Source: Cafeteria roenbergensis
Taxonomy: Eukaryota > Sar > Bigyra > Bicosoecida > Cafeteriaceae
Direction: 5' to 3'
DNA length: 64,000 nt
NCBI GenBank assembly: GCA_008330645.1
Contig: VLTN01000010.1
Span: 62,001-126,000, forward strand
The notes under the pieces were generated by a model. The model did not search any database and had not been told where the DNA came from. It saw only the letters and a list, made by a program, of their open reading frames with translations. Below, one piece after another: positions 11,538 to 64,000 of the stretch. Each line of letters starts with the position of its first letter. The first letter of the stretch is position 1. A program made the translations under genes and the position numbers.

Positions 11538-14500
11538 TCACAGCCTGCCCGTCCCAAAGGCGAAGGCGGAGCCCGAGCGCGAGCCGGAGGCGAGCGCCTG
11601 GCGGAGAACCAGCCCCTCCACAGAGGGAGCAAGCAGCCACCCGCCTGCGGCAGCGGCCACGCACGCAACGAGGGCCAGGGTCGCTGCGGCGCTGCTGGGA
11701 GCGCTTTGCGACGACCCCGGCGGCCCCCGCAGCTCCATCGATGGAGCGACGCACGACTGCTTGCGGCGGCCGGGAACGCCGCACACGGCACTGGCAAGGC
11801 CCCGCTCTACGACTTCGGCTGCCGCCACGTCGCGCACCGCCTGCGGTGCGCACCCCGGCGCGTCCTGGGCAAGCTGCCGGTGCCGCCTGGAGACGGCCAC
11901 AGCGATGGACTGGGCGAGAGCGCGGCTGGCAGGGGCCAGGGCCAGCTCCATCCCCAGCCGCGCGGCGTGCGGGTGCAGCTGCACCAGCTCCGCTTCGGCC
12001 TCCGCGAGCCTCGCCTCCACGCCCAGCATCTGGTCGGAGATCCGCTCGGCCTCGGCGGCGGGAACGCCCAGCCCGTGTGCCAGCGAAGAGCCGCCCCGGC
12101 TGTGAGCGGCTGCTGCCAGCACTGCTAGCCGCGCCGGCTGCAGGGCCCGCTGGGCCGACAGGAGGAACTCCGCCCGCCCGAGTGCATCCACGAGGTGGAA
12201 CGGGAGCTGCCCGTCCGCCCGCTCCGCCGCCAGCAGCACCTCGAGGCTGGGCTCCAGCGGGACCAGCCGCGACTCCGTGTCCACCGTGACGGAGCGGCTC
12301 GAGGTGGTCCAGCACTCGCGATGGTGCGAGCGCACTCGCGCCGCGTCCCAAGGGCCGACGTCGAAGGCGTTGCCCTGCGCTGAGGCGCCGAGCGCCGGAA
12401 CGCCGGCGCAGGCGGCCGCTGGCGCGGCGGACGAACGGACGCCCCAGCCGCTTTCGAGAGTGGCTGCGACCAGAGCGCGCGCCACATCGGCGGCGGGGTC
12501 CAGACGCTGTGCCCTGCCGCCGCACGCCAGGGAGCCGTCGCAGACTCGGGTCTCGGCCTCTGGGACGGCCGGCGCGGCCGTGGCGGGCTCGGTGCGCACT
12601 GCCACGGCCACTCCCGCCGTGGCGGAGGCGAAGGCAAACGGGCCGTCCCACAAGAGGGCGGCGGGGCCGCTGGCGCCGGGCCGGCCGTGGCGGGCGGGAT
12701 CCGGCCGAACGCTGAGCAGCACCGCGGGCACAGCCCTCGTGGTGCTGCCCTTGACTGAGCGAATGTCCAGGGTGGAGTCGGCGCCGCCGTCCCCCCGAAC
12801 GCGAAGGCTCTCCTCCTGCAGCCACTGGGCCATCGCCTCGCCGGAGAGCAGGACAGGCGCCCCTTCGCTGGGGGGCGCGGCCGCCGCCCGCCGCAGCATC
12901 TCCGCGCAGTTGGTGCAGGCTTCCAGGGGCACGACGGCGCACTCTGCCGTCACGTGCGTGGCGGCCAGGCCCACCTCTTCGGGCAGGCCTTCGGCAGCGC
13001 GGCCGGAGGCATGCCGGCTGGCGTCCAACAGCGGGGCTAGAGCAGCGTCCAGCCCGGGCCGCTGGGCGGCGCCCTCGGTCGTGGCGCACGGGCCCCAGCG
13101 GACCCGCGCGGTCGCGCCGCCCTCTCTCCCGGCACCGGGACCACCCGTTCCGGCGCTGCCTGCGGCCCTGAGCTGGGCCTCGTCCACCCTCAGGATGAGG
13201 ACTCTCACGCGGGCCTCGTGGCTGGCGGCCAGCACGGCTGCCCCCGGCGTGGAGGCGCCCTCCGGCACAGTCCCTTGCGGGATGGCGTACACCGGCGAGG
13301 CGACGACTGCCTCTGTCAGCCGAGCCAGCCAGGAGCCCATTCTGCCCGCCCAGGCAGCGAGCAGGCGAGATGCATCGCCGCGCGCCACCGGCCCGAGGTC
13401 CCCTGCGCGCCCCCCCGACAGCGCGGTCAGGCCTGCGTTGCCCGTGAGCTTTCCCGTTGAGGCCAGGACCGCCGACGCCACGATAGGGAACCGGGGCGCT
13501 GCCCACGACCGTGCCAGCGAATGGGCCTCCCCGTCGGGCGTGGGCTCCGGGGCGTCGCCGCCTGAAGTCATGGCGTGCATTCGCCGCAGCTCTGCCGAGA
13601 AGACTTTGCGCATCTCCTGCTCGCCAGCGTGTCTGTGCGTGGCCACCGCGTCGGCTCCGTGGGCGCCGACGTCGATCCAGGCCAGCCTCCGGCTCCAGTC
13701 CACTCCGGCGTTGCAGCTGCACCCGCGGGTCGGGCACTGGTACGCATACCGGGCTGCCGAAGCGACCACTGGCCCAGGCCCTTGGCCTGCCGCGCGCTCC
13801 AGGCGGGCCGCCAAGTCGTCCCGGCGCCTGGCCGACTCGAACGTGCCGCCGCCGCCGTTGCCCCCTCCAGCCGGCGCCTCCACAGGGAGGCTCACGAAGC
13901 CACCGTGGCCCTGGCTCCCGCCGCGAGCGGCCTGGATGATGCGCGGGTGCAGCACGAAGAGCGAGGTCCCGTGCCCCATGGCATCGTGGTGGGCGCGCAG
14001 CAGCGAGACCAGGGCCTCAGGGTCCAGCACCGGCACGCCGCTGCCGCTGCCGCTGCCGCTGCCGCTGCCGCTGCCGCCCGGGGCAAGCCGCTGCTCCCGC
14101 GCGGCGGCGAGCTGGCGCTCCACGACGTCCTGCACAGCCCGCCATAGCGACCGCCGTGCGTGGGTCACGCGGTAGTTGGGGGTGATGCTCAGGGCCACCG
14201 GCATGTCCACCGCAGCAGCGGCAGGCGAGCCCGCGGTCGGGGCGGACACGGCAGCCGCAGCATCCGCCAGCGCATCGATGTGCTCCCCCCCTCCGGCGGC
14301 CGCTGCCGCCCGCTTGGCCCGTCCCCCTCCCTGCACGCGCGCCGCCTCGAGCGCGGTGTCCTCCTCCGGGTCGCTTCCCTGGGTGTCGTCGCTTGGGTGC
14401 GACCACGCGGCGCTCGCGGCCTCGGACGCAGCCGCAGCCTGCCACTCGGGCCGGCCCTGAGGTCTCATCGTGACCGGGTGGGACAGCTCCTGCAGCATGG

Positions 14501-14864
14501 CAGCCAAGCTCGACCCGTCGAATCGCAGACCCTCGACCAGCCACTCCGCGAGCTGCTTCGAGTCAGGATCCTCGCCAGAAGGCGCGCCCCAGCCTCCGGG
14601 CGTCTCGCCTGGCCAGTGCTTTCCAGTTGCGCGAGCACGTGCGCCCAAGGACGTGCCCTGCTCGTGCGGCTCAAACCCGACCAAGACGACGTCGATTGAC
14701 GTTCCGTAGCGAAACCCACCAAGCCCGTCGAGTTTGCTCAGCAGTGGCTGCTTGTCCGCCGCGACGGCGGGCCCGGAAGCGAGCAGCACCACCATGAGCA
14801 CGGCCGACAGCATCGATCCCGCCCAGCACTGCTGCCCACGGCCGCCCCCAAGCAGCGGCAGCAT
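11538..14864 (-). CDS. Large type I membrane protein related to plant AT5G58100-like (DUF7906) proteins
   Basis: Predicted 1,108 residues from the first ATG at 14864; the ATG at 14813 gives a cleaner signal peptide (MLSAVLMVVLLASGPAVA) and may be the true start. A single hydrophobic helix near residues 1055-1080 precedes a short C-terminal tail, so the bulk should face the ER lumen or outside. Blocks that line up in order with the plant family as I remember it: DVVLVGFEP then a run ending in LAEWL; LFVLHPR; RLAWIDVGA; TLDIRSVKGSTTRAVPAVLL; LACGGRAQRLDPAADVARAL; and GNAFDVGPWDAARVRSHH. Plant members are signal-anchored membrane proteins, one of them tied to pollen-wall formation, with unknown biochemistry. 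The protein also has a (Ser-Gly)n run and a Cys cluster CPTRGCSC. It is divergent from a secreted-protein gene. The family link is from memory and rests on spaced blocks, not on a search. Confidence 0.6.
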   Translation of the reverse strand: MLPLLGGGRGQQCWAGSMLSAVLMVVLLASGPAVAADKQPLLSKLDGLGGFRYGTSIDVVLVGFEPHEQGTSLGARARATGKHWPGETPGGWGAPSGEDPDSKQLAEWLVEGLRFDGSSLAAMLQELSHPVTMRPQGRPEWQAAAASEAASAAWSHPSDDTQGSDPEEDTALEAARVQGGGRAKRAAAAAGGGEHIDALADAAAAVSAPTAGSPAAAAVDMPVALSITPNYRVTHARRSLWRAVQDVVERQLAAAREQRLAPGGSGSGSGSGSGSGVPVLDPEALVSLLRAHHDAMGHGTSLFVLHPRIIQAARGGSQGHGGFVSLPVEAPAGGGNGGGGTFESARRRDDLAARLERAAGQGPGPVVASAARYAYQCPTRGCSCNAGVDWSRRLAWIDVGAHGADAVATHRHAGEQEMRKVFSAELRRMHAMTSGGDAPEPTPDGEAHSLARSWAAPRFPIVASAVLASTGKLTGNAGLTALSGGRAGDLGPVARGDASRLLAAWAGRMGSWLARLTEAVVASPVYAIPQGTVPEGASTPGAAVLAASHEARVRVLILRVDEAQLRAAGSAGTGGPGAGREGGATARVRWGPCATTEGAAQRPGLDAALAPLLDASRHASGRAAEGLPEEVGLAATHVTAECAVVPLEACTNCAEMLRRAAAAPPSEGAPVLLSGEAMAQWLQEESLRVRGDGGADSTLDIRSVKGSTTRAVPAVLLSVRPDPARHGRPGASGPAALLWDGPFAFASATAGVAVAVRTEPATAAPAVPEAETRVCDGSLACGGRAQRLDPAADVARALVAATLESGWGVRSSAAPAAACAGVPALGASAQGNAFDVGPWDAARVRSHHRECWTTSSRSVTVDTESRLVPLEPSLEVLLAAERADGQLPFHLVDALGRAEFLLSAQRALQPARLAVLAAAAHSRGGSSLAHGLGVPAAEAERISDQMLGVEARLAEAEAELVQLHPHAARLGMELALAPASRALAQSIAVAVSRRHRQLAQDAPGCAPQAVRDVAAAEVVERGLASAVCGVPGRRKQSCVAPSMELRGPPGSSQSAPSSAAATLALVACVAAAAGGWLLAPSVEGLVLRQALASGSRSGSAFAFGTGRL
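14038..14076 (-). repeat. (CTGCCG)n microsatellite encoding Ser-Gly repeats
   Basis: Six perfect CTGCCG units plus a partial one lie inside the membrane-protein gene. On the coding strand they read as alternating Ser and Gly, a flexible linker likely to vary in length between strains. Confidence 0.85.
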
Positions 14865-15147
14865 CACCAGCTCTCCCCGCCTGGCCTGTGCTGCTGCGGG
14901 CCGCGACCCGCTTGCGGGCGGGAAGCCCGGTGCGCTGCCGGCCGCAGAGATCAGAGGTCGAAATACCAATGGCACGGCTCGCTATTTGAGCGCGGACTGG
15001 CTGGCAGAGCACGCAGCCAGAGGCGCAGCCGACGTCGCCGCAGGCGCCCGGGCCACAGCCCGCAAAAAGCCTGCTGCGGAGGCCGGGCGGGCACGCTTGC
15101 CGGGACAAGCACCAAGAGGTGCTCCCGTGAACAGCCCACTGCCCACT
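14865..15147. promoter_or_regulatory. Divergent promoter between two secretory-pathway genes
   Basis: 283 bases between divergent ATGs. It contains a CCAAT box at 14966-14970 and the element TATTTGAG at 14983-14990, together the most AT-rich patch of the interval. The same octamer recurs at 61831 and, inverted, at 20589. Both flanking genes encode proteins with signal peptides, so shared control is plausible but inferred. Confidence 0.45.
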
Positions 15148-18100
15148 ATGGGTTGGGCAGTCGTGCTGCTGGCGCTCGCAGCGCCTGCGGCGCTCCTGCA
15201 CTCTGCCTCGGCTGCCGATGCGACCAAGGTGAGCGCGCACAAGGAGCCAAGGCTCTGGTCGATGCGCCATGGGTGTCTTGCTCGCGGGGCGAACGCGCTG
15301 GGAGGGCCGGGTCGGCGCTTGGGGCCGCTGCATCGGCGCTCCAGCCGGGTGCGGCGCTCGGGTGCCTCTGCGTCGTTTTCCACTTGCGCCCCGCACCCGG
15401 CCTGGCCACGCGCACCAGGAGCGGCGGAGTCTGGCAGCCCGGGGTCTGTTGCCGTGCAAAGGAGTGGCCCGTGGCCGGCCGTGCCTGGGGCCGAGGTCAC
15501 GGGCGCTGCGGCTGCAGCGTGCGTGCGGGACCGTCCTCAGGGAGCCTGCCCGCCTTGCGTGGGCGCCCGCGCCCGGCGAGCGCGCCCTGCGATGAGGAGC
15601 GCCCGCCACTCGGCTTGCTGTGCGTTCCCCCTCTGTGCGTCCCCGCCTCGCAGGCTGCCGCCGAGGCGCGCGCCTCGGTGCTGCAGCGCAAGTCGCTGGC
15701 GCAGCTTCTGTCGGGCAAGGCAGAAGACACTCCGCTGTCGGCCGCAGAGTCGCTGCGCTTCGCCGCAAGGTCTCACAACCGCATGAAGTACTTCCCGTAC
15801 TCCGCCGCCGGGCAGCCTGCGCAAGCCGCCGGGTGGTCGCGGGCGACGGCCGCAGCGCAGCAGTACGGCCAAGTGGCTAGCTCGCCGGTGCTCGCCGGGC
15901 CGCACTCGGTACCGATGGTAGGGACCCACCCCATGATGGGCATGCACCCCGTGATGGGCATGCACCCCATGATGGGCATGCACCCCATGATGGGCATGCA
16001 CCCCATGATGGGCATGCACCCTGCTGTTGGCCCCCACGGCATGCTGATGGGGCCTCCCACCGTGGCCTCTCCCTACGGCTACTCCACCGTGGGCGGGGCG
16101 CTGCCGCAATGGGTCGGGCCTGTGTTCCCGTCCGCGCACGCCTACTTCCAGCCGTACGGCGCCAACGTGCCTGCATACGGCGGCGCCGCCATGACGCCCT
16201 ACACGCCTGCCTACGGCGCCTACGGCTCTGCCCTGTGGAGCGACTACCGCATGTGCTCCAACACCGGCATTCCGCCCGAGGGCACCCCGGAGTTCCCGTA
16301 CCCGGACGTTGACGGGCCCAAGGCGATGCGCAAGGTCCGCCGCTCGCTGATGATGGGCCAGCCGGTGGGCACCTTCGCGTTCCGGAAGGGCGTGCAGCCT
16401 AACACCATCGAGGCCGACACGGTGGCCGGCCAGCACCAGGGGGGGATCGCCCTGCTCACCACCTACACCTTCAAGTGCATCGGTGGGGCGGGCGTCGGCC
16501 GCCTGGAGAGCATGGACGGCCTCGGCACTCGCTCCACCATCCAGGAGTGGGTGGCCTCCAAGCCCACGCTCTTCCGCTACCCGCTCGGGGACCAACCCGC
16601 CGTTCCCGAGGGCCACTCTGCAATCGCGGCCGCGGGCCACCCCGGCTTCGTGCACGGCGTCGCTCATGGCGCCTTCAGCTTCCGCCAGAAGGCGGGCAAG
16701 TCGGCGGGCGCCAAGAGCGGCCACGCCGCCGCCCCCGCCGCAGCCCCGGCCACGGCACCTGCCGCCAGGCCTTCCGCCGCGCCCAAGTCTGCCCAGGCCG
16801 TCGCTGCCGAGGCCGGCCAGCGGATGCTGGAGCGCAGCGGCATGGTGCCCGGCGTTGGCGCTCCCTTCATGCCTGGCATGGTGCACCCGTACCTCATGCA
16901 CTCGGGCCTCGACGCGTTCGCCAGGGGGCAGCTCCCCGGTCACGCAGTCACGCGTGACCCGCTGACCGGCGAGGACTTCGACATCACGCCCATCTCCGCC
17001 GAGCGCGGGGCACGGCTGTCGCACTACGGCCCCTACGGCGTGTACTCGCCCGCGTCGCCGCTGATGCTCAACGGCATCCACACCTCGTACTTGCACCCCT
17101 CGTACTCCACCGGCTTCCTCCACCCCGCCTCCGTGTTCTACCACCCGGCGCACTGGGCGGGATTCGCGCACCCCCTCGCGCGAACCCACGCCATGAACCA
17201 CTGGACGCACCCGTACTCCCACGGCTTCCACTCCCCCCACGCTGTGGCTGCGGCTCACGCCCTGTACTCCGGGTACACTGGCTACCCGGGATACGGTTAC
17301 GGATACGGATATGGCTTCAAGGGCACCGGCTCGTCGTCAACGGCCGGGAACGCGACGTCGAGCAACTCCACGACCACTGCGTCTGCCACGTCCGCTTCCG
17401 CAACGTCTGCCACTGCCGGCTCGGGCAGCACGCGGTTTGCCCAGCTCAGGCTCAGGCACGGCGACGGGCCGGCGAAGACTGGCGGTACCCCGGTGGTCAA
17501 CCCGGGCCCCAACACCGCTGGCAACACCGGTTCCGAAGCCGCCAGGGCTGCCGCCGACGCCGCTCTGCAGCACGCTGGCGCCTCGGCGGCCATCAATGCG
17601 GGCGCGGCCAACACCATGGCCAGCGGCGCCTTCCCTATGGCCCCCACTGCCGCCTTCGCCGCCCATCACCACATGGCTCCGCCGGGCGTGTTCCCCTCCA
17701 CTGCCCCGCTCGTGCACGTCCCGTACGCGGGCGGCAGCGCCATCGGATTCCCCTACGACATGGGCATGGGCGCGGCTCCCTCACCGTGGGACCCGTTCGT
17801 CAACCCCGCCATGGCGGCTGGCTACGGCCACCCCATGCACCCCCTGCATGCGGCGCACATGCACGCTCGCTCTCGGAGCGCCCACCTCCACGCCATGTAC
17901 GGTGCGAGCATGGGCGGCATGTACGGCGCTGGCATGTACGGCTATGGCATGGGCGGCATGCACGGTGTGCACGGCCACATGCCCCTGCCGCGTAGCATGT
18001 ACGGCTACGGCATGGGCATGGGTGGCATGTACGGCCCTGGAATGGGCATGTACGGCATGGCTGGCATGGGCTACGGACCCATGTACAGCGCTGCCGGTGC

Positions 18101-20168
18101 GGTTGCGGCCACCCACGCCCGCGCGGCTGCTAGCACCGCCCACCGCCTGGACCTGGACGCCGACGCGCACCAAATCGCCTCTGCGGCGCACGCCCATGCC
18201 GCCAACGTGGCCCACGTTCACGCGGGGGCCGCTGCGAACTCGGCCCTGACGGCCGACCGCGCCGCGCAGGCCATTTCGGCTGCGGACATGGCAGGCGGCA
18301 TCATGCTCCAGACCAAGGCGGCGCAGCGTTCGGGCCTTCGGGGCCGCTCCGCCTCTGGCGTTGCGTCGGTGAACGCCCCTGCCGGCTCCACGGCGGCGGC
18401 CGAGGCGGCCGCGGACATCCGCACGGTGCTCAAGGCCGCCCGCGACGGCACCGGCGTCCCTGCCTCGGCTGTCGGAGCAGCGCGCCTCGGCCGCCACCTT
18501 CGCAAGGGCGCCATGCCCGGCGCCGCCAGCTCCATGCGCTTCGCGGCCGCTGGCTCGCACGCCACCGGTGGCCCCGCCGGCGCCAGGGCGAGCGGCATGA
18601 TGCACCCCTACCTTCCCTACTCTCAGCCGGGCTTCGGCAACTACTTCCCCCAGGCAGCCCTTGCCGCCAACATGTACAACCCCATCAACCCCATGTTCGC
18701 CGGCCCTCGCCCAGGCTTGCCCGTCTACGGCTACGCGCACGCGCCCATGCCCTTCCACCCCGGCATGGTGCCTGCCTACGGCTACGGCGGAGTCCCCATG
18801 GTGGCGCACCCCTTCGCGCACGCCCACACGTTGGCGGCCCATCACGCGGTCCGCGCGACGCACGCCACGATGGCTGCGAACCGCCACATCGCCGGCGCTC
18901 ATCACGCCGTCATGGCCGCCAACATGCACCGCATCATGGCCCAAAGCCACCAGGCGCACGCAATGGCGTCGGCGCACCCGATGGCGGGCCTCCACTACGG
19001 CCCCTGGAGCCACGTCCACGCCCCGTACATCCACAGCTGGCTGCAGGTGGCGTCCAAGTCGTCCAGGTCCAAGGCCACGGCCGGCACTTCGGCTGCCGCC
19101 AAGGCGCTGGCAGGCCGCCACGCGGCGTCGGTCGCCCTCATGGCTGGCCGGACTGCGGCCGCCGTGTCGGCCGCCGCGGCCTCTGCTCGCGCTGTGCTGG
19201 CATCTGCGACCACAACCGAGGCGGCCTCCAAGGCCGGCGCCAAGTCTGAGGCTGCCAGCAAGTCCGGCAGCGCTGCTGGCGCCAAGGGAAAGATCTACGG
19301 CCCCTACGCCCACCCGTACGCTGCGGCCGGCGCCGCTGCCGCGCACATGGCCTACTACGGCCCGACCACGGCCATGCCCGCCGCCATGTACGGCGGCCCG
19401 TGGGGAACGCCCGCGGTCCACATGCCCGTGCACCCCGGTGTGGCCCACGGCATGCCCGTGTCCATGGGCTACCTGCACCCGATGCACCCCGCGCCCTTCT
19501 ACGGCGCGTCTGGGCTGATGCCCTACGCCCACATGCACCCCTTCGCGCACGCGTACAGCCCCTATCAGGCTGGCCAGTACCACCCCTACCACCACCCCAT
19601 GTACGCCTTCGGCCCCGGCACCTTCCCCGGCCCGCACCAGTCTGTGCTGTCATCCCTCGCGATGGGCCAGATGTACGCGGTGTGCCGGCAGGTCAACCTG
19701 CCCCCCGCCTCTCCGACGCCGGACTTCCCCTTCTACAACCGCCACGCTTCCGAGGCCAAGTACATCCACGAGCAGCTGCTCCCTGGCCTGCCCGTGGGCA
19801 CCTATGCGGTGCGCATGGCCGCCTCCGGCGACGGCGTCGCCGTCGATGTGAACGTGCCCCTCGACAAGGCCAACCCGACCAACATGGGCCCCACCCGCGT
19901 GGCCCACTACAAGTTCCGCTGCGAGGGCAACCAGCTCGTGGACTCGACCGACCCCGCCCGCTCCTACTACAGCCTGGAGTCGCTCACCGACTCCATCCCC
20001 GTGCTGCAGAACCCGGTGGGCTCCATCATCCCGGAGACCATGCACATCGCCGCGTCCGGCCTGCCCGTGACCCCGGCCATGCTCGAGCACCTCCGCCAGA
20101 CTGGCATCGTCAACGAGCAGGTGAAGAAGGCCAACAGCGGCCAGGTCGGCTCGGGTATCGTCTACTGA
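15148..20168 (+). CDS. Secreted Met/His/Tyr/Ala-rich protein with duplicated terminal domains
   Basis: Exon 1 is 15148-15228 and encodes a textbook signal peptide (MGWAVVLLALAAPAALLHSA, then SA before ADATK). Exon 2 is 15654-20168; donor AAG/GTGAGC, acceptor CGCAG, phase 0. The total is 1,531 residues. Residues about 223-342 and 1366-1488 are copies of one domain: each has Y-x-x-C, then PP-x-x-TPxFPY, then G-x-PVGT-(F/Y)-A-x-R, then (T/H)Y-x-F-(K/R)-C and a C-terminal helix-like end. The paired cysteines (228 and 302; 1371 and 1450) suit a disulphide outside the cytosol. Between them lie about 1,000 residues rich in Met, His, Tyr, Gly, Pro and Ala, including HPMMGM repeats, GYGYGYG stretches, a Ser/Thr patch near 585-625 that could be O-glycosylated, and Ala-rich helices. 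I do not recognise the family. A matrix, adhesive or metal-binding surface protein fits the composition; no function is shown. Confidence 0.8.
15229..15653 (+). other. Intron of the secreted Met/His-rich protein gene
   Basis: 425 bases between the signal-peptide exon and the main exon, with GTGAGC at the 5' end and CCCCGCCTCGCAG at the 3' end. The main exon's frame happens to stay open through it, but the translation is Cys/Arg/Gly-rich and unlike the rest of the protein. The signal peptide lies in another frame, which supports splicing. Confidence 0.75.
15933..16022 (+). repeat. Five tandem 18-bp units encoding MMGMHP
   Basis: Unit ATGATGGGCATGCACCCC, five copies in register: copy 2 begins with GTG and copy 5 ends in CCT; otherwise they are identical. 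The coded Met-Met-Gly-Met-His-Pro repeat is rich in possible soft-metal ligands. Near-perfect identity at the DNA level points to recent expansion. Confidence 0.95.
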
Positions 20169-20885
20169 GCAAGAGCGGGAGTGTCTGATCGCCCCCGCGG
20201 TGGTGGACAAGCGGGCTGGCTGCATGGCATGCGGCTGGGGGGTTGGCAGCGGGGGCCGGGCGCGATTGACGCTCGGGCATGGGCGCGGAGCTGGGGATGG
20301 GCGGAGCAGGAGCGCGCGCCACTCTCCCCATTTCCCCGAGCGTCCGGTGGGGGCCGTCCAGTGGTGTGCTGGTGCACTGGGCAAGAGGCCAGTTGCAGCT
20401 TTTCGGCGCGTGGATGTCAACGTGCCGATCGGCTGCATGGCGCGCGCAGCTGCTGAGCTGGAGCGTGCGCCGCGCTGCGTAGCTTTGCATGTGTGTGTGT
20501 GCTGCGGCATGTGCAAACACGGGTTCGATTCGTGGCAAGTTCATTCATTCGCGCCACAATTCGGAATTGCCAAATCCAAACTGGTCTGCTCAAATACCCC
20601 CGACCCGGAACGAATAGGGCAGAGCAAGGGCAAGGGCGCATCGCGCCAAGCAACGGGCCGAGGCACCCTCACCCGACGGCAGGCGCCTGCCGCACCGCTC
20701 CCTCTTCAGCCTGGAGCAGCAACTGATTGAACCGTCTGCGGCGCCCGGCCAGCGCAGTCTGGGCTCGGCGCTGAAAACCCCCGCGGAGCGCCAGCATCTC
20801 TCGACCTGCGACCTAGCGTCGCGTCCAGCGGCGCTCCCAGGCCCACCGGGCACTGCGTGGCGGGCGCCTTGGGTGGGCAAGTGCG
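20169..20885. other. Intergenic region with candidate promoter of the cyclic-nucleotide-domain gene
   Basis: 717 bases between two plus-strand genes. It should hold the 3' UTR of the secreted-protein gene and the promoter of the next. There is a (GT)n tract near 20489-20501 and a relatively AT-rich island at about 20525-20600 with CTCAAATA at 20589-20596, the inverse of the TATTTGAG element seen elsewhere. A B-box-like GGTTCGATTC at 20522-20531 has no tRNA around it. No protein-coding signal was found. Confidence 0.4.
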
Positions 20886-23800
20886 ATGGAGTCCTCCTTG
20901 GATGCCGCACCGGCCAGGGGAATCGTGGAAGTGGCGTCTTTCCGAGGGAAGCAGATGTTGTCAGTTGCGGGCGAGCCCCGCAACGCGCTTGCGTCGGCAG
21001 GAAGGCGAGCATTGGTCGCGGGCGCGCCCTCGGCAAGTCAGGCTGCGCTTGTTTCCACTTCGTGTGCCGACGCGGACACGGCCAGCGGCGATAGCAGCCA
21101 CCTTCGGTCTGCGTCGGGCTTGGCGGTTGCGGCTGGCGGCGACGGCACCAGCGTGCTGGAGCTCTTCGCCCCGGGCGGGAGGCTCGCGTCTCTGCGGTCG
21201 TCGACGCTGCACACGCTTGTTGAGGGTATGCTGCGCCGCGACGGGCCTGCGCACGCCGTGAGCGACACCGAGCGGAGACTCGCCGAACGACGCGAGCGCG
21301 CTTTGCGGTCGGTGGGGCGCCACACGGGCCCTGCTCTCATGGAGACTGTGGGCCTCGGAGACCTGCTCAGCAAGGCGGGTGCGTCCCCGAGAGCCGCCCC
21401 GGCCTGGAGCCGCCCGGGCGCCAGTGGCAGAGGCTCCCCTCCGGCGCCGAGTCGCTCCGAGACGAAGACGGCTGACGGGCCTCCGCGCGGCAGAGCCAGC
21501 AGTGCCGGCCGCAACGGCAAGCGGAGTGCCAGCCCCGTCCGCCGTCGCCCTGCCCACGCCGCGCTTGGGCTCTCCGCCCGGGGGCCGGCCCCTCCTGTCG
21601 GGCTTACGCGACCCGCCTCCTCGACCAAGCCAGCGACTGCGCGCGGCCGCCTGGCCAGCAGCTCCTCCTCCGCTGCGTCCCCGGAGCGCGCGGGGGAGTC
21701 CCGCATCGCGGCCGCCGTGATGCCCGCGGTGGCGTCCAGCCTGGCCTCGGCCAAGCAGCGCGCCCTGGTGGAGCCGCCGCTGCCTCGCAAGCCGGCCCGG
21801 CGGCGGCGGGCCTCATCCTCGGGCATGAACCGGCCAGGGGACGTGGGCGAGCCGCTGGTGACGCTGGAGCCTCCCCAGCGCAGCGTGGCTGCCGCCGCGT
21901 CAGCCGCCTGCGGAGGCGCCCTCGCAGTGGCCCGGACCCCGGACGTCGACCAGCTGACCGGCAGAGACGCGGCCCTGGCCGCCTCGCAGACCCCCGCTGA
22001 GCGCCTGGCGGCGGCGCGCTCCGCTGGGGTCCTGGGCCCCGCCGGGGAGGGAGGTTCGAGCTCGACCCTAGGCACCGCGCCCACGGTCGCGTCTGTGCGC
22101 GAGGCACGGGCGGCGAGCGAGGCCGCAGCCCTGTCGTCTGCCGCCTACGGCCCTGGCGGCTCCGGCAGCGCCGGTGCGGCGCCAGGCGGCGCTGGGGCGG
22201 GCGTGCTGCGTCGCACGGTGCTTCTCTCGCTGGAGCAGGCGAAGCGGCTGCGCCCGGACGACGACGCCGAGGCGCAGGCAGCGCTCGAGGTGGCCTCCCG
22301 GGCTCTGCAGGACCGGAACGCAAGGAGTACAGTCGAGGCGCTGGCCAGGGGCATGGGCGGGCGTGCCCGAGGAGGGGCTGCCGACGGCGGCGAGCCGGGG
22401 TCGGGTGCCGGGCGCGCAGCGGAGGGCCGCCCCCCGCGCCAGCGCCTTCGCGCGGCATCGCACTCGGGCGCGCCCCCGGACGCGGCAGGGGGGGTTCCCC
22501 TTGCTGCGGGGGCGACCAGAGACGGTGCGGCTGGCGGGGCAAGCGCGGCGGCGAGCACAGCGCGTGCGCTCCTGTCGTCGCTCGGCTGCCGAGTGGAGAC
22601 CCGCTACTTCATGACCGACGTCAACCGCGAAACCGGGCTGCCGGCGTGGGTGGTGCAGCGGCCGGAGCTGCACACGGTTCTGAAGCGAGGGGCGGAGGGA
22701 GGAGAGCTCCCGCTGTTTGACGCGCTGACGGTGCCCCCGGGGCGGCGGGCGGGGCCGCAGCTGCAGGCGCTCGTGCAGTGGCTTCGGCGGCGCTCCCCCC
22801 TGTTCGCCTCCCTGCCGCGGGACGCTCTGGTGCCGGTGGCGCAGGCGCTGTCGGCCGTGCATCTGCCGCCCGGGGCGCGCCTGGAGCCACCCGTGGCGGC
22901 CGTTGGCAGCTCCGCCCTGGCGGCTCGCAGGAGGAAGAGCCTGCGGATGCGCGGCCGCGCAGCTCTGCAGGGTGACGGCGAAGACGGCGCGGGCGACAGC
23001 AGCGGGAGCGACGGGGGCATGAGCGGCGAGATGGCGGCCTCGGGGCCCGGCGCGAGCGTCATGGACGCCCTGGCACGGGCCGAGGAGGAGGACGCGGCCG
23101 CCACCGCCGCTGCCGCCGGGCCGGGGCGAGACGGGGCGGGAGCCAGGCCGGCGGCGGGGCTGCCGGCCAACCCGTGCGTGTGGTTCGTCGCCAGCGGGGC
23201 GCTGGTGCTGGCCGAGGGGGTGTCTGTGCGCCGATTGCGGGAGGGGGACGTTCTCGGGTCGACAGCCTGGCTTCGCGCGCTGGAGACGGGGCTGAGCGCC
23301 AGGCACGACCCGGACGGCAGCGGGCGCCGCACAAGCTCGCTGCTGGACCAGGCCCGTCTCGATGCGGCTCTGCAGCGGGAGGACCACGTTCGCTCTGGCG
23401 CGGCCTGGGGCGCAGGCAAGCCGGGCGCTGCGCCCCAACAACGGTCGGCGGCTGTGGCGTCGTTTGCCGCAAAGGCCTTTGGCGACGCAAGGCCGCCTGC
23501 CGCCCCGCAGGCAGAGAGGGACCAGGCGCGAGCTGCTCACAGGCGGCCAAGCAACCCAGCAGAAGCCGAGGCGACACGGCAGCAGGGCGCCGTGCAGGCG
23601 GTAGCGCGGCGCCCCTTCGCGCCACCGGCCGCTGCCCCGGCTGCGCCTCGGCCCGCGCCGCCCTCCTCGGACGACCCCGCGCCGCCGGCGCCCGTGCAAG
23701 GCGCTCCAGCTCGCGCAGCGCTCCCCTCCGCCGTGTTCGTCCGAGGCCCGTCAGGGCGTCGCGTCAGGGCGCAAGGCGGCCCCAGGCGGGTCAAGCGGGC

Positions 23801-26800
23801 CGGCCAGTCGCTGCGAGAGGCTGCTGACCGCCACGGCGCACGCCAAGGCAGCGCTCCGCATGGGCCTATGGAGCGGCCCGTGGCGGCACCCGGGTCCGCT
23901 CCGGCGCCAAGGCCACCAGACAAGGCTGTCTCGGCGCGCGCCGGAGCGCCCCGCAAGCCCGCGGGCTCGGCAAGCGGCCCCCGGCGGCTGGTGGCGACAG
24001 TGTCGTCGCCAGCAGCTGCCGCCAGCCGCAAGGCTGCTGTGCACCGGCCCCCAGCGGCCGCCGCCGTCAAGAGGTCGCCCTTGCGTGCCGCCGCCTCCGC
24101 TGGCGCCGGCACTGCCGCTGCCGGCGGCCAGAGCGCCGCGACGGACCCCGCCGCGCGAACAACGGATGCGCGACGGGCCGCCCGAAGGGCGTCTCTCAGC
24201 AGAGCCATTCGCAGGACAGCTCGCCGGTTCTCGGCGGTGCTCGACGCCGGGGCGGCCGGCGCGGTCGCAGTTGCGGCGACAAAGCGGGACGATAACGGCG
24301 ACGCAGCCGACGAGGGCGCCGAGGGCCCGTCCCTGGGCATGAGCGGGCCGGCGTTTGGCGGCGGCGGACCGCCCTCCGGCTCCGGCTGCTCGCTTGTGTG
24401 CCTGTCTGTGGAGGCGTACGAGCGAGCAGTGCGCACGGAGCAGTCGCGGCTGGCCAGGCGCGCGGCCGCTTGGCTGCTGGCCCGCAGCCGCCCGCTGAGC
24501 AACTGGACCATGCCAAGGCTCCTGTCGCTGACGCGGTGGGTGGAGCAGCGGTCTGTTGTTGCCGGCGAGGTGCTCTGGCGGCAAGGGGACAAGTCGGACG
24601 GCATTTGCTGGGTCGTCTCGGGCGAGCTGGAGGCGATCATGACCGTGTCGGTGCGGTGTCAGCACCGCATCCCGCACTCGGACGGGCCCTCAAGCCGATT
24701 CGCGAGGCGCGGCGGCGACTCGCAGGGCAGCGGCAGCGGGCGGGGCAAGCCCAACGTGGTGGTTGTGAGGCGGGTGGACGCAGTCGTGAGGCACGCCGGG
24801 CCAGGCTGCATCGTGGGCGAGGAGGCCGTCTGGGACCTGGCTCGGCAGCGGCGCGAGGCCGAGGCCCAAAGGCGGCGACGGGCGGCGCGGCACCGCGGAG
24901 CGCCCAACGTGTCCAACTCCGCCCGGGATGTGGCTCGACGGATTGCACGCGGGCTGGCCATGACGTCAGCACTTGCAGGTGGCGGCGGCTGGGCACGCCG
25001 GGCAGGCGCCGCGTCCGCCTCCTCCACGCCCCCGGCTGCCCCGCCTGCCGGCCAGAGGACGGGCCCCGGCGGCGCTGCAGGCCCGGCGGGTGCCACCTCC
25101 GGCCTTGCTGGCCCGGAAAGGCGAGCTGGGCGGCCGCCCCCCCCTACAGGCGGGCCCCGGCAGGCCAACCCTGCGCAGGCCGCCGTGACGCCCTCTCCGC
25201 CTCGTCGGCCACAGCCGCCGGCCCTGGAGTCGGTGCAAGGGCCGGATCCAGCGCCGGAAGAGGAGCCGGACTTGCCGCCGCTGCCGAGCTCGGCCCGCCG
25301 CACGACGCTGGTGGCGGTGCGCGCTTGCGAGCTGCTGGTGCTCCGTGGGCCTCACATGCGCGCGCTGATGCGGCGCACAGCGCTCGACATGGCGGCTGCG
25401 CAGCACTCGCGCAAGCACCGCACGTCGGGCCGACGGACTCTCCGCGACGCGATCGAGGAAGACTCTGGAACAAGCGCGTCAGCTGGCGGCGCCGCACTGC
25501 CAGCAGGCCCGGCTGCGGGGGCAGGGGGCGCGCGTGCGCTCCGCGGAGCCGGCGCTGCCGCCGGCGCAAGCGCCAGCTCCGCTGCAGGCACCAGCAGCAG
25601 CGCCGGCGCCGACAAGGACGACTCCGACGAGGCAGAAGGCGGCGCTCCCACCATTCCGGCCGAGCTGGCAGGCAGCGGCGGTGCCGTGGAGTCGCTTTGG
25701 CGGCTTGCGGTCTCGCAGCCCTCCCCCTCCGCAGTCGCGGAGGCCCACGCCGTGCTCTTGCAGCTGCGGGTTGCTGCGCGCTCGATTCAGCAGGCTGCGA
25801 TGGGGCCGCGGGCAGCCCAGCGCATGGTGACGCAGCGAGCCCAGGCCGCCTTCGCTGGAGTGGTGCCGCTGGGAGGCAAGCAGGGCGCCGTCGCCGAGGC
25901 CAGAGCAGGAAGCATCCTCACCGTGGCGCTGCCTGCCGCCTCCGCCTTCTCCTCAGCACACAACTCGGGGGGTGCTGCAGCTGCGAGCAGGGGCGGCCAT
26001 GGCGCCCTGGCGCAAACTGCGTCCTCGAACCGCGGCGTAGGCATCGCGGGGGGCGCTCCCTCGGCCGTGGCCAGGTCGAGCTGCGCCACGGCGCAGGGAG
26101 CTTCCGACGCGCCCGGCTCGGCAAGCGCTGGCCGTTCCGCCGTCGCGATGAGTCCGCGCGTGCGGGCGCTGTGGGAGGCGGTCACGAGCGGGGACGCCCA
26201 GCGAATCAGGCAATCGGACCTCGTGCGGCGGCACGTGCGGGAGGCAGACGAGGCCACGGAGCGTCGCGCCAGGCGCATTCGCGAGTGGGCGAGCGGGTGG
26301 GGGTCTCGCGGGGCCGGCCCGCTTCCGACGATGCTGCTTGACGCCTCGGAGCAAGACGCAAGCGCCGCAGCTGGCGCCACGCCGCGGGACGCAGCGGGCG
26401 TCCGCCGCACCGCCGACGGCAAGCCCCTCTTCCCCCTGGCGACCATGCGGCTGCCGTTTGTGGCTCCATCGCCGGGGCAAACGGACGAGGAGGCGGTCGC
26501 GGCTGCGATGGCTGCGGAGGGGGACGCGGACGGAGCGTCGCTGCTGGTCGCGGAAGAGGAATCGCCAATCGTGGCTCGCCTTGGGGCCCTCTCCACGGGG
26601 ACGCTTGTCGCCGCGGGCACCTCGGCAGGGCGGAGGCAGCGGCAGGGCGGCGCAGATCCCTGCAGCGCCGACGCGTCTGCCGGCCCAGGTGGCCGCTACA
26701 GCGTTGTGGGGCTTCGCACGCGGCGGGCCGGTGTCGCGGAGCTCTCGCTGGCCCTGGAAGGAGCGACCGACGCCAAGCTGCACGCGAAGCAGGTGGCCGC

Positions 26801-27821
26801 CCTGCGGCAGACGCAGAAAGCCGCGCTGGCGCGCTACCTGGAACCCGTGCCATCCAGCGTACGAGCCGCAAGCGACGTCTTGTTGACTCGCAGCGAGTCC
26901 GGCGTGCAGCCGGTGGGTCCTGTGGTCAGCAGGCCGGGCAAGCGGACGAGCCTCGAGCGGGGCGAGGGCCCAGCGGACTCCCATGCGGCTGTGTCCGCTG
27001 CCGTCGCTGCGCACAAGGCCGCGCAGACGGACGCGTTCGTGCGGCTGATGGATGCGCAGGCGGCAGCCGCCAGGGAGGCAGCGGCAGCGGGCGATGCGAC
27101 TTCGCCAGCCCTCTCCCATGCGTCCTCGACGCTGAGCGCGGGGAGCATGGCAGGACGGCCCGCCGCTGACGACAGCGAGGACGAAAGCACCAGCGACAAT
27201 GGCGAGCTCCGGCTGCTGCGCGAGGAGGAGAGACAGGCAGACGGGACACTGGGCTCGGCGACTGCGCTGGTCCCGATCGGCTCGTCTCCCGGTGGGCCTG
27301 GATCCAACCGAGCTGTGCTGGAGGACGTGATGCGGCTGAGCCGGCGACCGGTCGTGCCCCCTCTTGCCATGCACGCGCTCGCCGGCTCCGAGCAGGCCAC
27401 TGCCACTGGAGACCCAGCCTGGGCAGACCCTGAGACTGCAGCGTGGGACGCCGCAGGACTGGACTGGGCAGGCGGCCGCGCTGGGCAAGATCAGCTCCGG
27501 CTTTCGGCAGCTGCCGCTGCTGCCAGCAGGCATGCGGCCGAGGCTGGGGCCCACAGCGTATCGCTGCCCTGCGGCCCGCCCTCGGACGGGTTTTCGGCAG
27601 AGGCTGCCGGCGGGGACATCGTGGGCGACGCTTTGGCGGAGCTCGAGGCGTTGCGGCTCGGCGGCGGGAGCAGCGCGGACGCCGGGACTGAGCGCCAGTC
27701 AGCGTTCCTGGGCAGGGCCGCCACCGACCTTGGCGGGGAGGGCGACGAGAGTGACACGGAGTCGGTGCAGGAAATGCTGCGAACAGCGCTCTTCTCCACG
27801 GGACGGCGCGCTGGAGAGTGA
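20886..27821 (+). CDS. Large protein with two expanded cyclic-nucleotide-binding-like domains
   Basis: Predicted 2,311 residues from the ATG at 20886, one uninterrupted frame. Two regions have the layout of a cyclic-nucleotide-binding (Crp-like) beta-roll. The first runs from LFASLPRDALVPVAQAL (about 639) through CVWFVASGALVLAEG to LREGDVLGSTAWL (about 764-798). The second runs from LSLTRWVEQRSVVAGEVLWR and QGDKSDGICWVVSGELEAIM (about 1210-1255) to PGCIVGEEAVWDL (about 1305-1319) and TTLVAVRACELLVL (about 1474). Each fold is split by long Ala/Gly/Arg/Pro-rich inserts. I could not find a clear phosphate-binding-cassette arginine pattern, so cAMP or cGMP binding is unproven. No kinase, channel or membrane segment is visible. 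The flanks are low complexity. The protein is probably a soluble scaffold or signalling protein. Confidence 0.65.
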   Translation: MESSLDAAPARGIVEVASFRGKQMLSVAGEPRNALASAGRRALVAGAPSASQAALVSTSCADADTASGDSSHLRSASGLAVAAGGDGTSVLELFAPGGRLASLRSSTLHTLVEGMLRRDGPAHAVSDTERRLAERRERALRSVGRHTGPALMETVGLGDLLSKAGASPRAAPAWSRPGASGRGSPPAPSRSETKTADGPPRGRASSAGRNGKRSASPVRRRPAHAALGLSARGPAPPVGLTRPASSTKPATARGRLASSSSSAASPERAGESRIAAAVMPAVASSLASAKQRALVEPPLPRKPARRRRASSSGMNRPGDVGEPLVTLEPPQRSVAAAASAACGGALAVARTPDVDQLTGRDAALAASQTPAERLAAARSAGVLGPAGEGGSSSTLGTAPTVASVREARAASEAAALSSAAYGPGGSGSAGAAPGGAGAGVLRRTVLLSLEQAKRLRPDDDAEAQAALEVASRALQDRNARSTVEALARGMGGRARGGAADGGEPGSGAGRAAEGRPPRQRLRAASHSGAPPDAAGGVPLAAGATRDGAAGGASAAASTARALLSSLGCRVETRYFMTDVNRETGLPAWVVQRPELHTVLKRGAEGGELPLFDALTVPPGRRAGPQLQALVQWLRRRSPLFASLPRDALVPVAQALSAVHLPPGARLEPPVAAVGSSALAARRRKSLRMRGRAALQGDGEDGAGDSSGSDGGMSGEMAASGPGASVMDALARAEEEDAAATAAAAGPGRDGAGARPAAGLPANPCVWFVASGALVLAEGVSVRRLREGDVLGSTAWLRALETGLSARHDPDGSGRRTSSLLDQARLDAALQREDHVRSGAAWGAGKPGAAPQQRSAAVASFAAKAFGDARPPAAPQAERDQARAAHRRPSNPAEAEATRQQGAVQAVARRPFAPPAAAPAAPRPAPPSSDDPAPPAPVQGAPARAALPSAVFVRGPSGRRVRAQGGPRRVKRAGQSLREAADRHGARQGSAPHGPMERPVAAPGSAPAPRPPDKAVSARAGAPRKPAGSASGPRRLVATVSSPAAAASRKAAVHRPPAAAAVKRSPLRAAASAGAGTAAAGGQSAATDPAARTTDARRAARRASLSRAIRRTARRFSAVLDAGAAGAVAVAATKRDDNGDAADEGAEGPSLGMSGPAFGGGGPPSGSGCSLVCLSVEAYERAVRTEQSRLARRAAAWLLARSRPLSNWTMPRLLSLTRWVEQRSVVAGEVLWRQGDKSDGICWVVSGELEAIMTVSVRCQHRIPHSDGPSSRFARRGGDSQGSGSGRGKPNVVVVRRVDAVVRHAGPGCIVGEEAVWDLARQRREAEAQRRRRAARHRGAPNVSNSARDVARRIARGLAMTSALAGGGGWARRAGAASASSTPPAAPPAGQRTGPGGAAGPAGATSGLAGPERRAGRPPPPTGGPRQANPAQAAVTPSPPRRPQPPALESVQGPDPAPEEEPDLPPLPSSARRTTLVAVRACELLVLRGPHMRALMRRTALDMAAAQHSRKHRTSGRRTLRDAIEEDSGTSASAGGAALPAGPAAGAGGARALRGAGAAAGASASSAAGTSSSAGADKDDSDEAEGGAPTIPAELAGSGGAVESLWRLAVSQPSPSAVAEAHAVLLQLRVAARSIQQAAMGPRAAQRMVTQRAQAAFAGVVPLGGKQGAVAEARAGSILTVALPAASAFSSAHNSGGAAAASRGGHGALAQTASSNRGVGIAGGAPSAVARSSCATAQGASDAPGSASAGRSAVAMSPRVRALWEAVTSGDAQRIRQSDLVRRHVREADEATERRARRIREWASGWGSRGAGPLPTMLLDASEQDASAAAGATPRDAAGVRRTADGKPLFPLATMRLPFVAPSPGQTDEEAVAAAMAAEGDADGASLLVAEEESPIVARLGALSTGTLVAAGTSAGRRQRQGGADPCSADASAGPGGRYSVVGLRTRRAGVAELSLALEGATDAKLHAKQVAALRQTQKAALARYLEPVPSSVRAASDVLLTRSESGVQPVGPVVSRPGKRTSLERGEGPADSHAAVSAAVAAHKAAQTDAFVRLMDAQAAAAREAAAAGDATSPALSHASSTLSAGSMAGRPAADDSEDESTSDNGELRLLREEERQADGTLGSATALVPIGSSPGGPGSNRAVLEDVMRLSRRPVVPPLAMHALAGSEQATATGDPAWADPETAAWDAAGLDWAGGRAGQDQLRLSAAAAAASRHAAEAGAHSVSLPCGPPSDGFSAEAAGGDIVGDALAELEALRLGGGSSADAGTERQSAFLGRAATDLGGEGDESDTESVQEMLRTALFSTGRRAGE

Positions 27822-61943: not shown

Positions 61944-64000
61944 ATGGGTGAGAGTGCTCCTCGGCTCGTGGCGCGTGGGCCAGGGCAGCTCAACGACCTG
62001 CGCTTGTTCCGAGACGGCTCCAGCCTTGCCCTCCCGCGCCAATGTGCACCCGCAGCTGGGGGACCCGATACTTCCATCGTCGTGTGCAACTTTGGAACGC
62101 ACAGCGTTCGCATTGGGTTTGCAGGAGATGCGGTGCCATTCTACGACGAGCCCTCGGTGAGCGTTGTTCCCGCGTGCTGCCTGCGCTGCCGTCCCCAGCC
62201 GGCTTGTTTGCTGGGATGGGTCGCCCTGTGTCTGCCGACGTCTTTCGCGCTCACTGTGCCCACCGTGTGTACCGTGTCACAGACGGTGTGGGCTGCGCCC
62301 GAGGCCCCCGGAGGCCCCGCCGCCGGGGGGAGCCGCAAGCGGCCGCGGCCCACGACTGGCCGGCGCATCTTCTTCGCTGCAGGGGCGGCTCCAGCTGGGT
62401 GTGAAATCACCTCTCCCGTCAAGGCCGGTCTTGTGTCGGACTGGGACGCAGCCTGGGCCCATATTGAGAGGGCCCTTTCTCGTGCCGACGGAGAGGCGGC
62501 GCCGCCCTCGGCCGCCGCGCAGGCGGCTCTTGCTGCCCCTTCGAGCTCCCTGCCATCCTCGTCGACAAGCTCTTCCTGTCCTGGCGGCGGATCTGGCGGG
62601 TCTTTGCGTCGCAGTGCGCTTCAGGGCCGCCGCCTCCTCGTCGTTGACAACCTTCTCGCGCCGCGCGCTGCCCGCGAGGCGTGGGCTGAGGAGGCCCTGG
62701 CTTGGAGGGGAGCCGCTGGGATTTCGTTTATCCGGGAGCCGGTGGCCATCTGGTGAGTGCTCTCTGCCTGCGGACGGGGAGCTTTGCATCATCCGCAGCG
62801 CGCGGCGTGCACGCCCTGCCCGGCTCGATGCCCATCCACCGGGCAGCGAGCGCGGGCGAGCGAGTAGCAGGAGAGAGATGGGTGGACTCAGCCCCTGCCC
62901 GCGAGTCGGTGCTGCGTGAGCGCCGACGGACCTCGTGCGTCCTGGTCAGTGCCTTGTTGGTGCCTGCGTGCGGAATGCTGTCTCGCTGTCGCAGCTTTGC
63001 TCACGGCTTTGTTTCTGGCCTGGTGATTGACATTGGTGCTTCGGGCTGCCGTGTTACGCCCGTAGAGGCAGGGTATCCTCTCGTTATGGCGCATCGCCAG
63101 TCCACCGTCGCTGGGGACTTTATGGACTTGGCAACCTCTGTCATCACGCGCTCTTCTGTGGGGAAGGCCTCGACGTGTCCTGTGGACCCCGCCTCGCTTC
63201 TAGCGACGGACGCGTCAGCTCGCGCACTTTTGGACAGCGCCAGGAGTTTGAGGGAGGCAGCAGCCGACTGCTGCCAACCATTGCTCGCAGGTGACGGCAC
63301 GTTCGACCTGGCAAAGCCGCCGCTTGTCCCAAAGCCAGTGGTTGTGGGCCCGCACAGGCTGAGCGGTGAAGCGAGGGCTCGCCTCGGTGACGTGCTGTTC
63401 AGGGAGGACGCACCAGACACTCCAGCCAGCACAGCTGCGGATGAAAGCAGTTCGGAGTTCCCTGCCCTGCCGCCTGGGGCTGCAACCATCCCGATGATGG
63501 TCGCGGCGTCGCTCTTCGCGTGCGAAGAGAGTGCACGTAGAGCGTGTGGCGAGGCAGTGCTGCTCACTGGTGGGGTCTCCCGCACAGGGCACTGTGCGGA
63601 CCGCCTTTCGTGGGAGCTGGCGCAGCCAGACGCGTTGGCCGCTGGGTTGGCTGTTCACCTGCTGCCTGTTCCTCTCAGCGAAGTCACGCACTCACCGTGG
63701 ATGGGAGGCTCGATCATCGCGTCTGCAGGCACGCTACCAGACCTTTTCATCAGTGCGAAGGAGTGGGACTCCGGGGACGCTTCGAAGCTACTCGCCAGGT
63801 GTATTTGAGAAGAGTGCCGCTGGCTATTCGTGCACCAACGTGGTTCTCATTCAACCTTGCTTGCCCCTGTGATTTGCCCGCCAGGATCAAGTGCCAGTTT
63901 GGAGAGCCGCTTGCTCCCGTCTCGGCCTTTCACTACGTCTGTTGGCTAAAAACATCTGTTGTGGGTAGAAGCCGTGCCGTTGCTGGGCAGTTCAAAGGGG
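61944..64000 (+). CDS. Actin-related protein, ARP4/BAF53-like, multi-exon, 3' end beyond window
   Basis: Exons 61944-62156, 62283-62752, 62995-63798 and 63885 to the window end. Introns are 126, 242 and 86 bases with donors GTGAGC, GTGAGT and GTGTAT and CAG/CCAG acceptors; all junctions keep the frame. Exon 1 has the actin phosphate-1 loop variant CNFGTHSVRIGFAGDAVPFYDEPS; exon 2 has SPVKAGLVSDWDAAWAHIE and LLVVDNLLAPRAARE; exon 3 has the phosphate-2 loop GLVIDIGASGCRVTPV, then VLLTGGVSR and SPWMGGSIIASAGTLPDLF. The K-x-G-x-V-x-DWD and LLxPxxxR pattern best fits ARP4, the nuclear actin-related subunit of INO80/SWR1/BAF and NuA4 chromatin complexes, but divergence is high. Exon 2 carries an insert of Ala/Ser-rich residues. 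Exon 4 reads IKCQFGEPL and is still open at base 64000. Confidence 0.75.

What the first reader, a model, noticed from the sequence alone, without database searches (positions are those of the whole stretch)
15148..20168. Secreted giant with the same unknown domain at both ends
Residues about 223-342 and 1366-1488 share an ordered pattern: Y-x-x-C, PP-x-x-TP-(E/D)-FPY, G-x-PVGT-(F/Y)-A-x-R, and (T/H)Y-x-F-(K/R)-C. The two cysteines are 74 and 79 residues apart. The N-terminal exon encodes a clean signal peptide. I recognise no family, and the duplicated caps around a 1,000-residue low-complexity core look like an undescribed extracellular architecture, perhaps a matrix or adhesive protein.
Basis: partly seen in the sequence, partly recalled or inferred. 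Interest (0 to 1): 0.75.

Follow-up and report, generated by a model that had tools for sequence, protein, structure and literature searches.

The report
Secreted protein with two SH2-like ends
A marine flagellate appears to encode a secreted, silk-like protein whose two matching end domains look like distant versions of SH2, a signalling domain otherwise known from inside cells, which would be surprising if confirmed.

Summary
One gene (exon 1 15148-15228, intron 15229-15653, exon 2 15654-20168) encodes 1,531 residues: a signal peptide and two homologous caps flanking a 992-residue low-complexity core. The protein has only four cysteines, two per cap at matching places. None of 20,000 shuffles reaches the cap-cap score. 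The signal-peptide exon is supported by coding potential and by being the only such exon among 108 donor-type sites; no RNA data were at hand.

"Unknown domain" is probably wrong: the caps look like remote SH2 domains. Profile comparison puts the FLVR arginine in register, with 0 of 200 shuffles as good. Both models show helix, strands, helix with that arginine on the first strand. All 50 listed VIA rows for cap 1 are SH2. Limits: no Pfam hit, weak PDB E-values, low model confidence, and no SH2 among the 50 VIA rows of cap 2.

SH2-like domains in a secreted protein were not found in print by my searches. The caps most likely act as binding or assembly domains of an extracellular polymer; phospho- or sulfotyrosine binding is open. 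New variant of a known kind.

The parts
15148..15228 (+). Exon 1: 27 codons, signal peptide MGWAVVLLALAAPAALLHSASAADATK
15229..15653 (+). Phase-0 intron, GTGAGC...CTCGCAG, 425 bases; negative coding score in all six frames; 10 Cys in 141 codons when read in the exon 2 frame
15654..20168 (+). Exon 2 with stop codon: residues 28-1531
15927..16021 (+). 5.3 copies of an 18-base repeat encoding MHPMMG, N-terminal to cap 1
16236..16625 (+). Cap 1, residues 222-351: SH2-like domain; Cys228 and Cys302; FLVR-type Arg271 (codon 16383-16385) in GTFAFR; betaD TYTF lacks the usual His
16668..19643 (+). Core, residues 366-1357 (992 aa): Ala/Ser/Lys-rich stretches alternating with His/Tyr/Met/Gly/Pro-rich blocks; two N-glycosylation sequons (593, 598)
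19668..20063 (+). Cap 2, residues 1366-1497: SH2-like domain; Cys1371 and Cys1450; FLVR-type Arg1414 (codon 19812-19814) in GTYAVR; betaD HYKF with His and Lys
20064..20165 (+). C-terminal tail after cap 2

Best explanation
The gene encodes a secreted, silk- or suckerin-like block polymer: Ala-rich stretches alternate with His/Tyr/Met/Gly/Pro-rich blocks, and one remote SH2-like domain sits before the core and one after it. Supported in silico: the signal peptide, the cap duplication, the SH2-type motif register and the order of elements. Inferred: in the oxidising secretory pathway each cap closes one disulphide (Y-x-x-C to betaD-Cys). Outside the cell the caps act as assembly or binding domains, joining chains to each other or to a partner. 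Cap 2 keeps the usual anion-pocket residues (FLVR Arg, betaD His and Lys) and could bind a phosphorylated or sulfated tyrosine, possibly in the Tyr-bearing core itself. Cap 1 keeps the FLVR Arg only and may be mainly structural. Odds: about 0.70 for 'secreted protein with two SH2-like caps', made up of about 0.30 for tyrosine-anion binding and 0.40 for a scaffold without it; about 0.4 for a matrix or adhesive role. On checking I lowered the first figure from 0.72 because one search had been left out.
Confidence: 0.6

Rival explanations
1. An ordinary intracellular SH2 protein: the signal-peptide exon is wrongly joined, the protein starts elsewhere, and the low-complexity core makes a cytosolic condensate or scaffold.
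For: All eukaryotic SH2 proteins known to me (recalled) work in cytosol or nucleus; no transcript data here; a betaD Cys also occurs in SLAP2 and SHP-1, so it need not form a disulphide.
Against: Residues 28-70 score as coding but have no in-frame Met before M71, so an upstream exon is needed; exon 1 scores as coding, its phase fits, and it is the only signal-like exon at 108 GT[GA]AG sites. Only four Cys, paired in the caps.
Confidence: 0.13
2. The caps are a secreted alpha/beta domain of another kind (cystatin- or NTF2-like: helix then curved sheet), and the SH2 resemblance is a chance match around a short G-T-[FY]-x-x-R strand.
Against: The two-cap match covers 78 columns; the cap 1 model, with cap 1 first in its alignment, gives SH2 in all 50 listed VIA rows; trimmed single and two-cap queries find SH2 first in the PDB.
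Confidence: 0.17
3. A variant of the best explanation: the SH2 fold is kept only as a scaffold; the caps are disulphide-locked assembly domains like silk terminal domains and bind no phosphorylated or sulfated tyrosine.
For: Cap 1 lacks the betaD His and Lys (TYTF); the loops after the Arg do not read like those of the five SH2 segments; no Fam20C or PIP49_C kinase found, though controls were silent.
Against: The FLVR Arg is kept in both caps although overall identity is only 28-30%; cap 2 keeps His and Lys in betaD.
Confidence: 0.4

Closest known systems
SH2 domain (Pfam PF00017; Src, SHP-1/2, SLAP2, Spt6 SH2)
   Same: Order of elements, GT[FY]xxR strand with the FLVR Arg in register in both caps, HYKF betaD in cap 2, top PDB hits for trimmed cap 2 by sequence and for cap 1 by structure
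   Different: Not reported by the Pfam model; extra N-terminal Y-x-x-C/PP...TP segment; one Cys pair per cap; in a protein with a signal peptide and no other recognised domain
Legionella SH2 domains (PMC6208348)
   Same: Divergent SH2 domains outside the classical set, accepted there on an alpha-beta-alpha signature plus the Arg on betaB (passages read)
   Different: Bacterial proteins; pTyr binding shown there, not here; no polymer core described in the passages I saw
Silk spidroins and squid suckerins (recalled)
   Same: Signal peptide, long core of alternating Ala-rich and Gly/Tyr/His-rich blocks, folded end domains in spidroins
   Different: No sequence relation tested or claimed; spidroin end domains are helical (recalled), not SH2-like

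Membership tests
SH2 domain | alphaA, then a series of strands, then alphaB | tested here: met
   Cap 2 H11-20 E30-34 E40-47 E61-70 E73-76 E83-86 H87-93; cap 1 H27-39 E47-51 E57-66 E72-82 E89-92 H102-108, one strand fewer, with an extra helix 2-8 in front. Low-confidence models.
SH2 domain | Arg on the first strand after alphaA (betaB5, FLVR) | tested here: met
   Arg33 of A3 in strand 30-34, Arg50 of A4 in strand 47-51; invariant in the seven-row alignment
SH2 domain | Three-dimensional SH2 fold, cap 1 | tested here: met
SH2 domain | Three-dimensional SH2 fold, cap 2 | tested here: inconclusive
SH2 domain | Recognised by the Pfam SH2 profile (operational criterion) | tested here: not met
   No SH2 row for caps or their pieces; the genome scan with PF00017 found only L005. 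So I call the caps SH2-like, probable remote relatives, and do not file them as members.
SH2 domain | Basic pTyr pocket beyond the FLVR Arg (betaD His, Lys; usual but not universal, recalled) | tested here: inconclusive
   Cap 2 HYKF has both; cap 1 TYTF has neither
SH2 domain | Binds phosphotyrosine peptides | not testable with these tools
   No binding data
Silk/suckerin-like block polymer | Signal peptide plus alternating Ala-rich and Gly/Tyr/His-rich blocks | tested here: met
   Composition along the protein, signal peptide; an analogy in kind only, family features recalled
Silk/suckerin-like block polymer | Material is secreted and assembles into fibre or matrix | not testable with these tools
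   No expression or localisation data

The most novel reading that the evidence does not exclude
An extracellular tyrosine-anion reading system in a stramenopile: secreted polymer chains whose SH2-like caps bind phosphorylated or sulfated tyrosines of the core, so that SH2 recognition cross-links an extracellular matrix or adhesive.
Probability: 0.2. Interest if true: 0.88.

Novelty: new variant of a known kind. Interest (0 to 1): 0.62.

Why it matters
SH2 domains are the textbook intracellular readers of phosphotyrosine (recalled). The phrases 'extracellular SH2' and 'secreted SH2' occur in none of the 5.39 million open papers searched. A secreted SH2-type pair would show the fold moved to another compartment, and would ask whether extracellular phospho- or sulfotyrosine is read by SH2 domains in nature. 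An SH2 has been engineered towards sulfotyrosine (PMC9204161, listing and abstract start only). It could also offer a naturally secreted SH2 scaffold for protein engineering.

Tried and rejected
Searches without a relative of the caps: Pfam and NCBIfam (one weak Stomagen row, E 0.29 over 21 residues, rejected as chance), IMG/VR (26 stretches matched a pattern, none confirmed), GTDB genomes (10 stretches, none confirmed), phages (cap 2 only), own genome beyond the two caps themselves. None of these collections is a set of protist genomes, so absence elsewhere is not shown. Whole cap 2 against the PDB gave a coat protein (0.61) before SHP-1 (1.1). A core piece hit C17 weakly (E 0.005); I saw no cap motif in its frames by eye and dropped it. 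Fam20C and PIP49_C: nothing, but the controls were silent too. Sulfotransfer_3: one hit, not shown to be a tyrosine sulfotransferase. Kinase and phosphatase families exist in the genome (146 and 4 matches) but say nothing about secretion. Disulphide geometry could not be measured: no coordinates were among the files. The absence of SH2 rows from cap 2's VIA list is told, not taken as exclusion. The nine-segment SH2 HMM contains SLAP2 and SHP-1, found through cap 2; for that reason one search also used sets without SLAP2 and a set chosen without the caps. The 862-piece control used the six-segment set with SLAP2, and its pieces overlap and include copies of this gene from loci. The SH2 idea came from reading the motifs, so the later tests are not blind.

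Full report
Setting. The window is G000:C10:62001-126000 of a 36,303,456-base, 167-contig genome, GC 0.65-0.78 in 2-kb steps. Size and contig number are close to Cafeteria roenbergensis strain BVI: 36,327,047 bases, 170 contigs, 70.1% GC in Table 3 of PMC6972860 (passages read). These strains are now called C. burkhardae (recalled). The strain is inferred, not shown. The organism is a bicosoecid, a stramenopile.

Gene. Exon 1 (15148-15228) and exon 2 (15654-20168) join in phase 0 to give 1,531 residues. A codon-usage score, trained on stretches of two other genes of the window that span their Pfam matches, is +0.31 for exon 1 and negative in all six frames of the intron. It is +0.36 for residues 28-70 and +0.39 for exon 2 as a whole. 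Residues 28-70 are therefore probably coding but precede the first in-frame Met (M71), so an upstream exon is needed. Exon 1 ends at the only + strand GT[GA]AG in 15001-15800. Among all 108 GT[GA]AG sites in the window, both strands, 1 has a signal-peptide-like ATG exon of 20-60 codons in front of it at 0.9 of the observed hydrophobicity or better, and it is this one. The most hydrophobic 19 residues are in the signal peptide (mean 1.86); the best beyond residue 30 has 1.31. No RNA data were available.

Caps. BLASTP of cap 1 with cap 2: 28% identity over 144 columns, E 3e-10 for the pair. 0 of 20,000 shuffles reach the local score of 105 (maximum 66); the best score of either cap against core or N-terminal part is 42. 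The four cysteines of the protein (228, 302, 1371, 1450) lie two per cap at matching positions. The own-genome search returns the two caps and nothing else.

Sequence evidence for SH2. Whole cap 2 against 177,635 PDB sequences gave two hits at E<=10: a coat protein (0.61) and SHP-1 SH2 (1.1). That hit and the motifs suggested SH2 to me. Phmmer of cap 2's core, cut afterwards, returns four hits; the best three are SH2 chains (SLAP2, SHP-1 twice) aligned at GTYAVR/FLVR and HYKF/HYRI. The trimmed two-cap profile returns two hits, both SHP-1 SH2. These E-values (0.38-1.6) are not significant alone; the agreement in family and register is what counts. The untrimmed profile and cap 1 alone returned none.

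Profile tests. hhalign of the two caps against six SH2 segments: 77.6%, P 1.9e-5, 78 columns. With SLAP2 removed: 56.0%. With only L005, HSH2 and CRKL, chosen without regard to the caps: 41.0%. In each case 0 of 200 column-shuffled versions score as high. Cap 2 alone: 0, 0 and 1 of 200; cap 1 alone: 2, 0 and 1 of 200. In a control of 862 overlapping pieces (six-frame ORFs of the window and ORFs of loci, this gene's copies included), the SH2 L005 leads (253.8 and 109.5). Cap 2 follows (30.3), then a partial cap 2 piece (20.2), one unrelated piece (20.0) and cap 1 (19.1). Real SH2 segments left out in turn give 96.0-98.1%, so the caps are clearly more remote. A home-made HMM gives cap 2 10.6 bits (0 of 5,000 shuffles) and cap 1 0.9 (75 of 5,000); the best of 556 window ORFs is this gene's own (6.3, next 2.1).

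Mechanism. In a seven-row alignment only the Gly and Arg of G-T-x-x-x-R are invariant. Cap 2 also has the betaD His and Lys; cap 1 does not. PMC3507883 (passages) describes the betaB arginine as central to pTyr binding, and the Spt6 tandem, where one SH2 keeps it and one lacks it. I infer that cap 2 is the likelier binder. A betaD Cys also occurs in SLAP2 and SHP-1; the N-terminal Y-x-x-C is the addition, so the disulphide is an inference from pairing and compartment. The core alternates Ala/Ser/Lys-rich with His/Tyr/Met/Gly/Pro-rich blocks and has two N-glycosylation sequons, which recalls silk and suckerin block polymers (recalled). [quoted passage not shown] Whether this flagellate has any is unknown; Fam20C and PIP49_C searches found nothing, with silent controls.

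Novelty. The phrases 'extracellular SH2' and 'secreted SH2' occur in no paper of the library. A five-term search found 94 papers; none of the 25 listed describes such a protein by title. That covers open papers only. I rate it a new variant of a known kind: SH2-like domains in a secreted block polymer. Under the strict membership rule the caps stay 'SH2-like, probable remote relatives', because the Pfam model does not reach them.

Noticed in passing
28137-48983 (-): A single stop-to-stop frame of 6,948 aa, extremely long for one exon.
   Followed up: no
11538-14981 (-): Divergent neighbour frame of 1,147 aa with, by eye, a signal-peptide-like start and a hydrophobic segment near its end; no Pfam match at E<=0.01.
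   Followed up: partly
20817-27821 (+): 2,334-aa frame with a cyclic-nucleotide-binding domain, PF00027 E 3.7e-9.
   Followed up: partly
L005 1501-1695 (G000:C36:192653-192847): The genome's one reported PF00017 SH2 hit (29.4 bits) in a 1,401-aa frame; used here as positive control.
   Followed up: partly
62001-64000: GC drops to 0.651 and AT skew to -0.217, the lowest values of the window's 2-kb steps.
   Followed up: no
L016 (G000:C64:71969-72337): One Sulfotransfer_3 hit (E 6.5e-7) in a frame that, by eye, has a signal-peptide-like stretch.
   Followed up: partly
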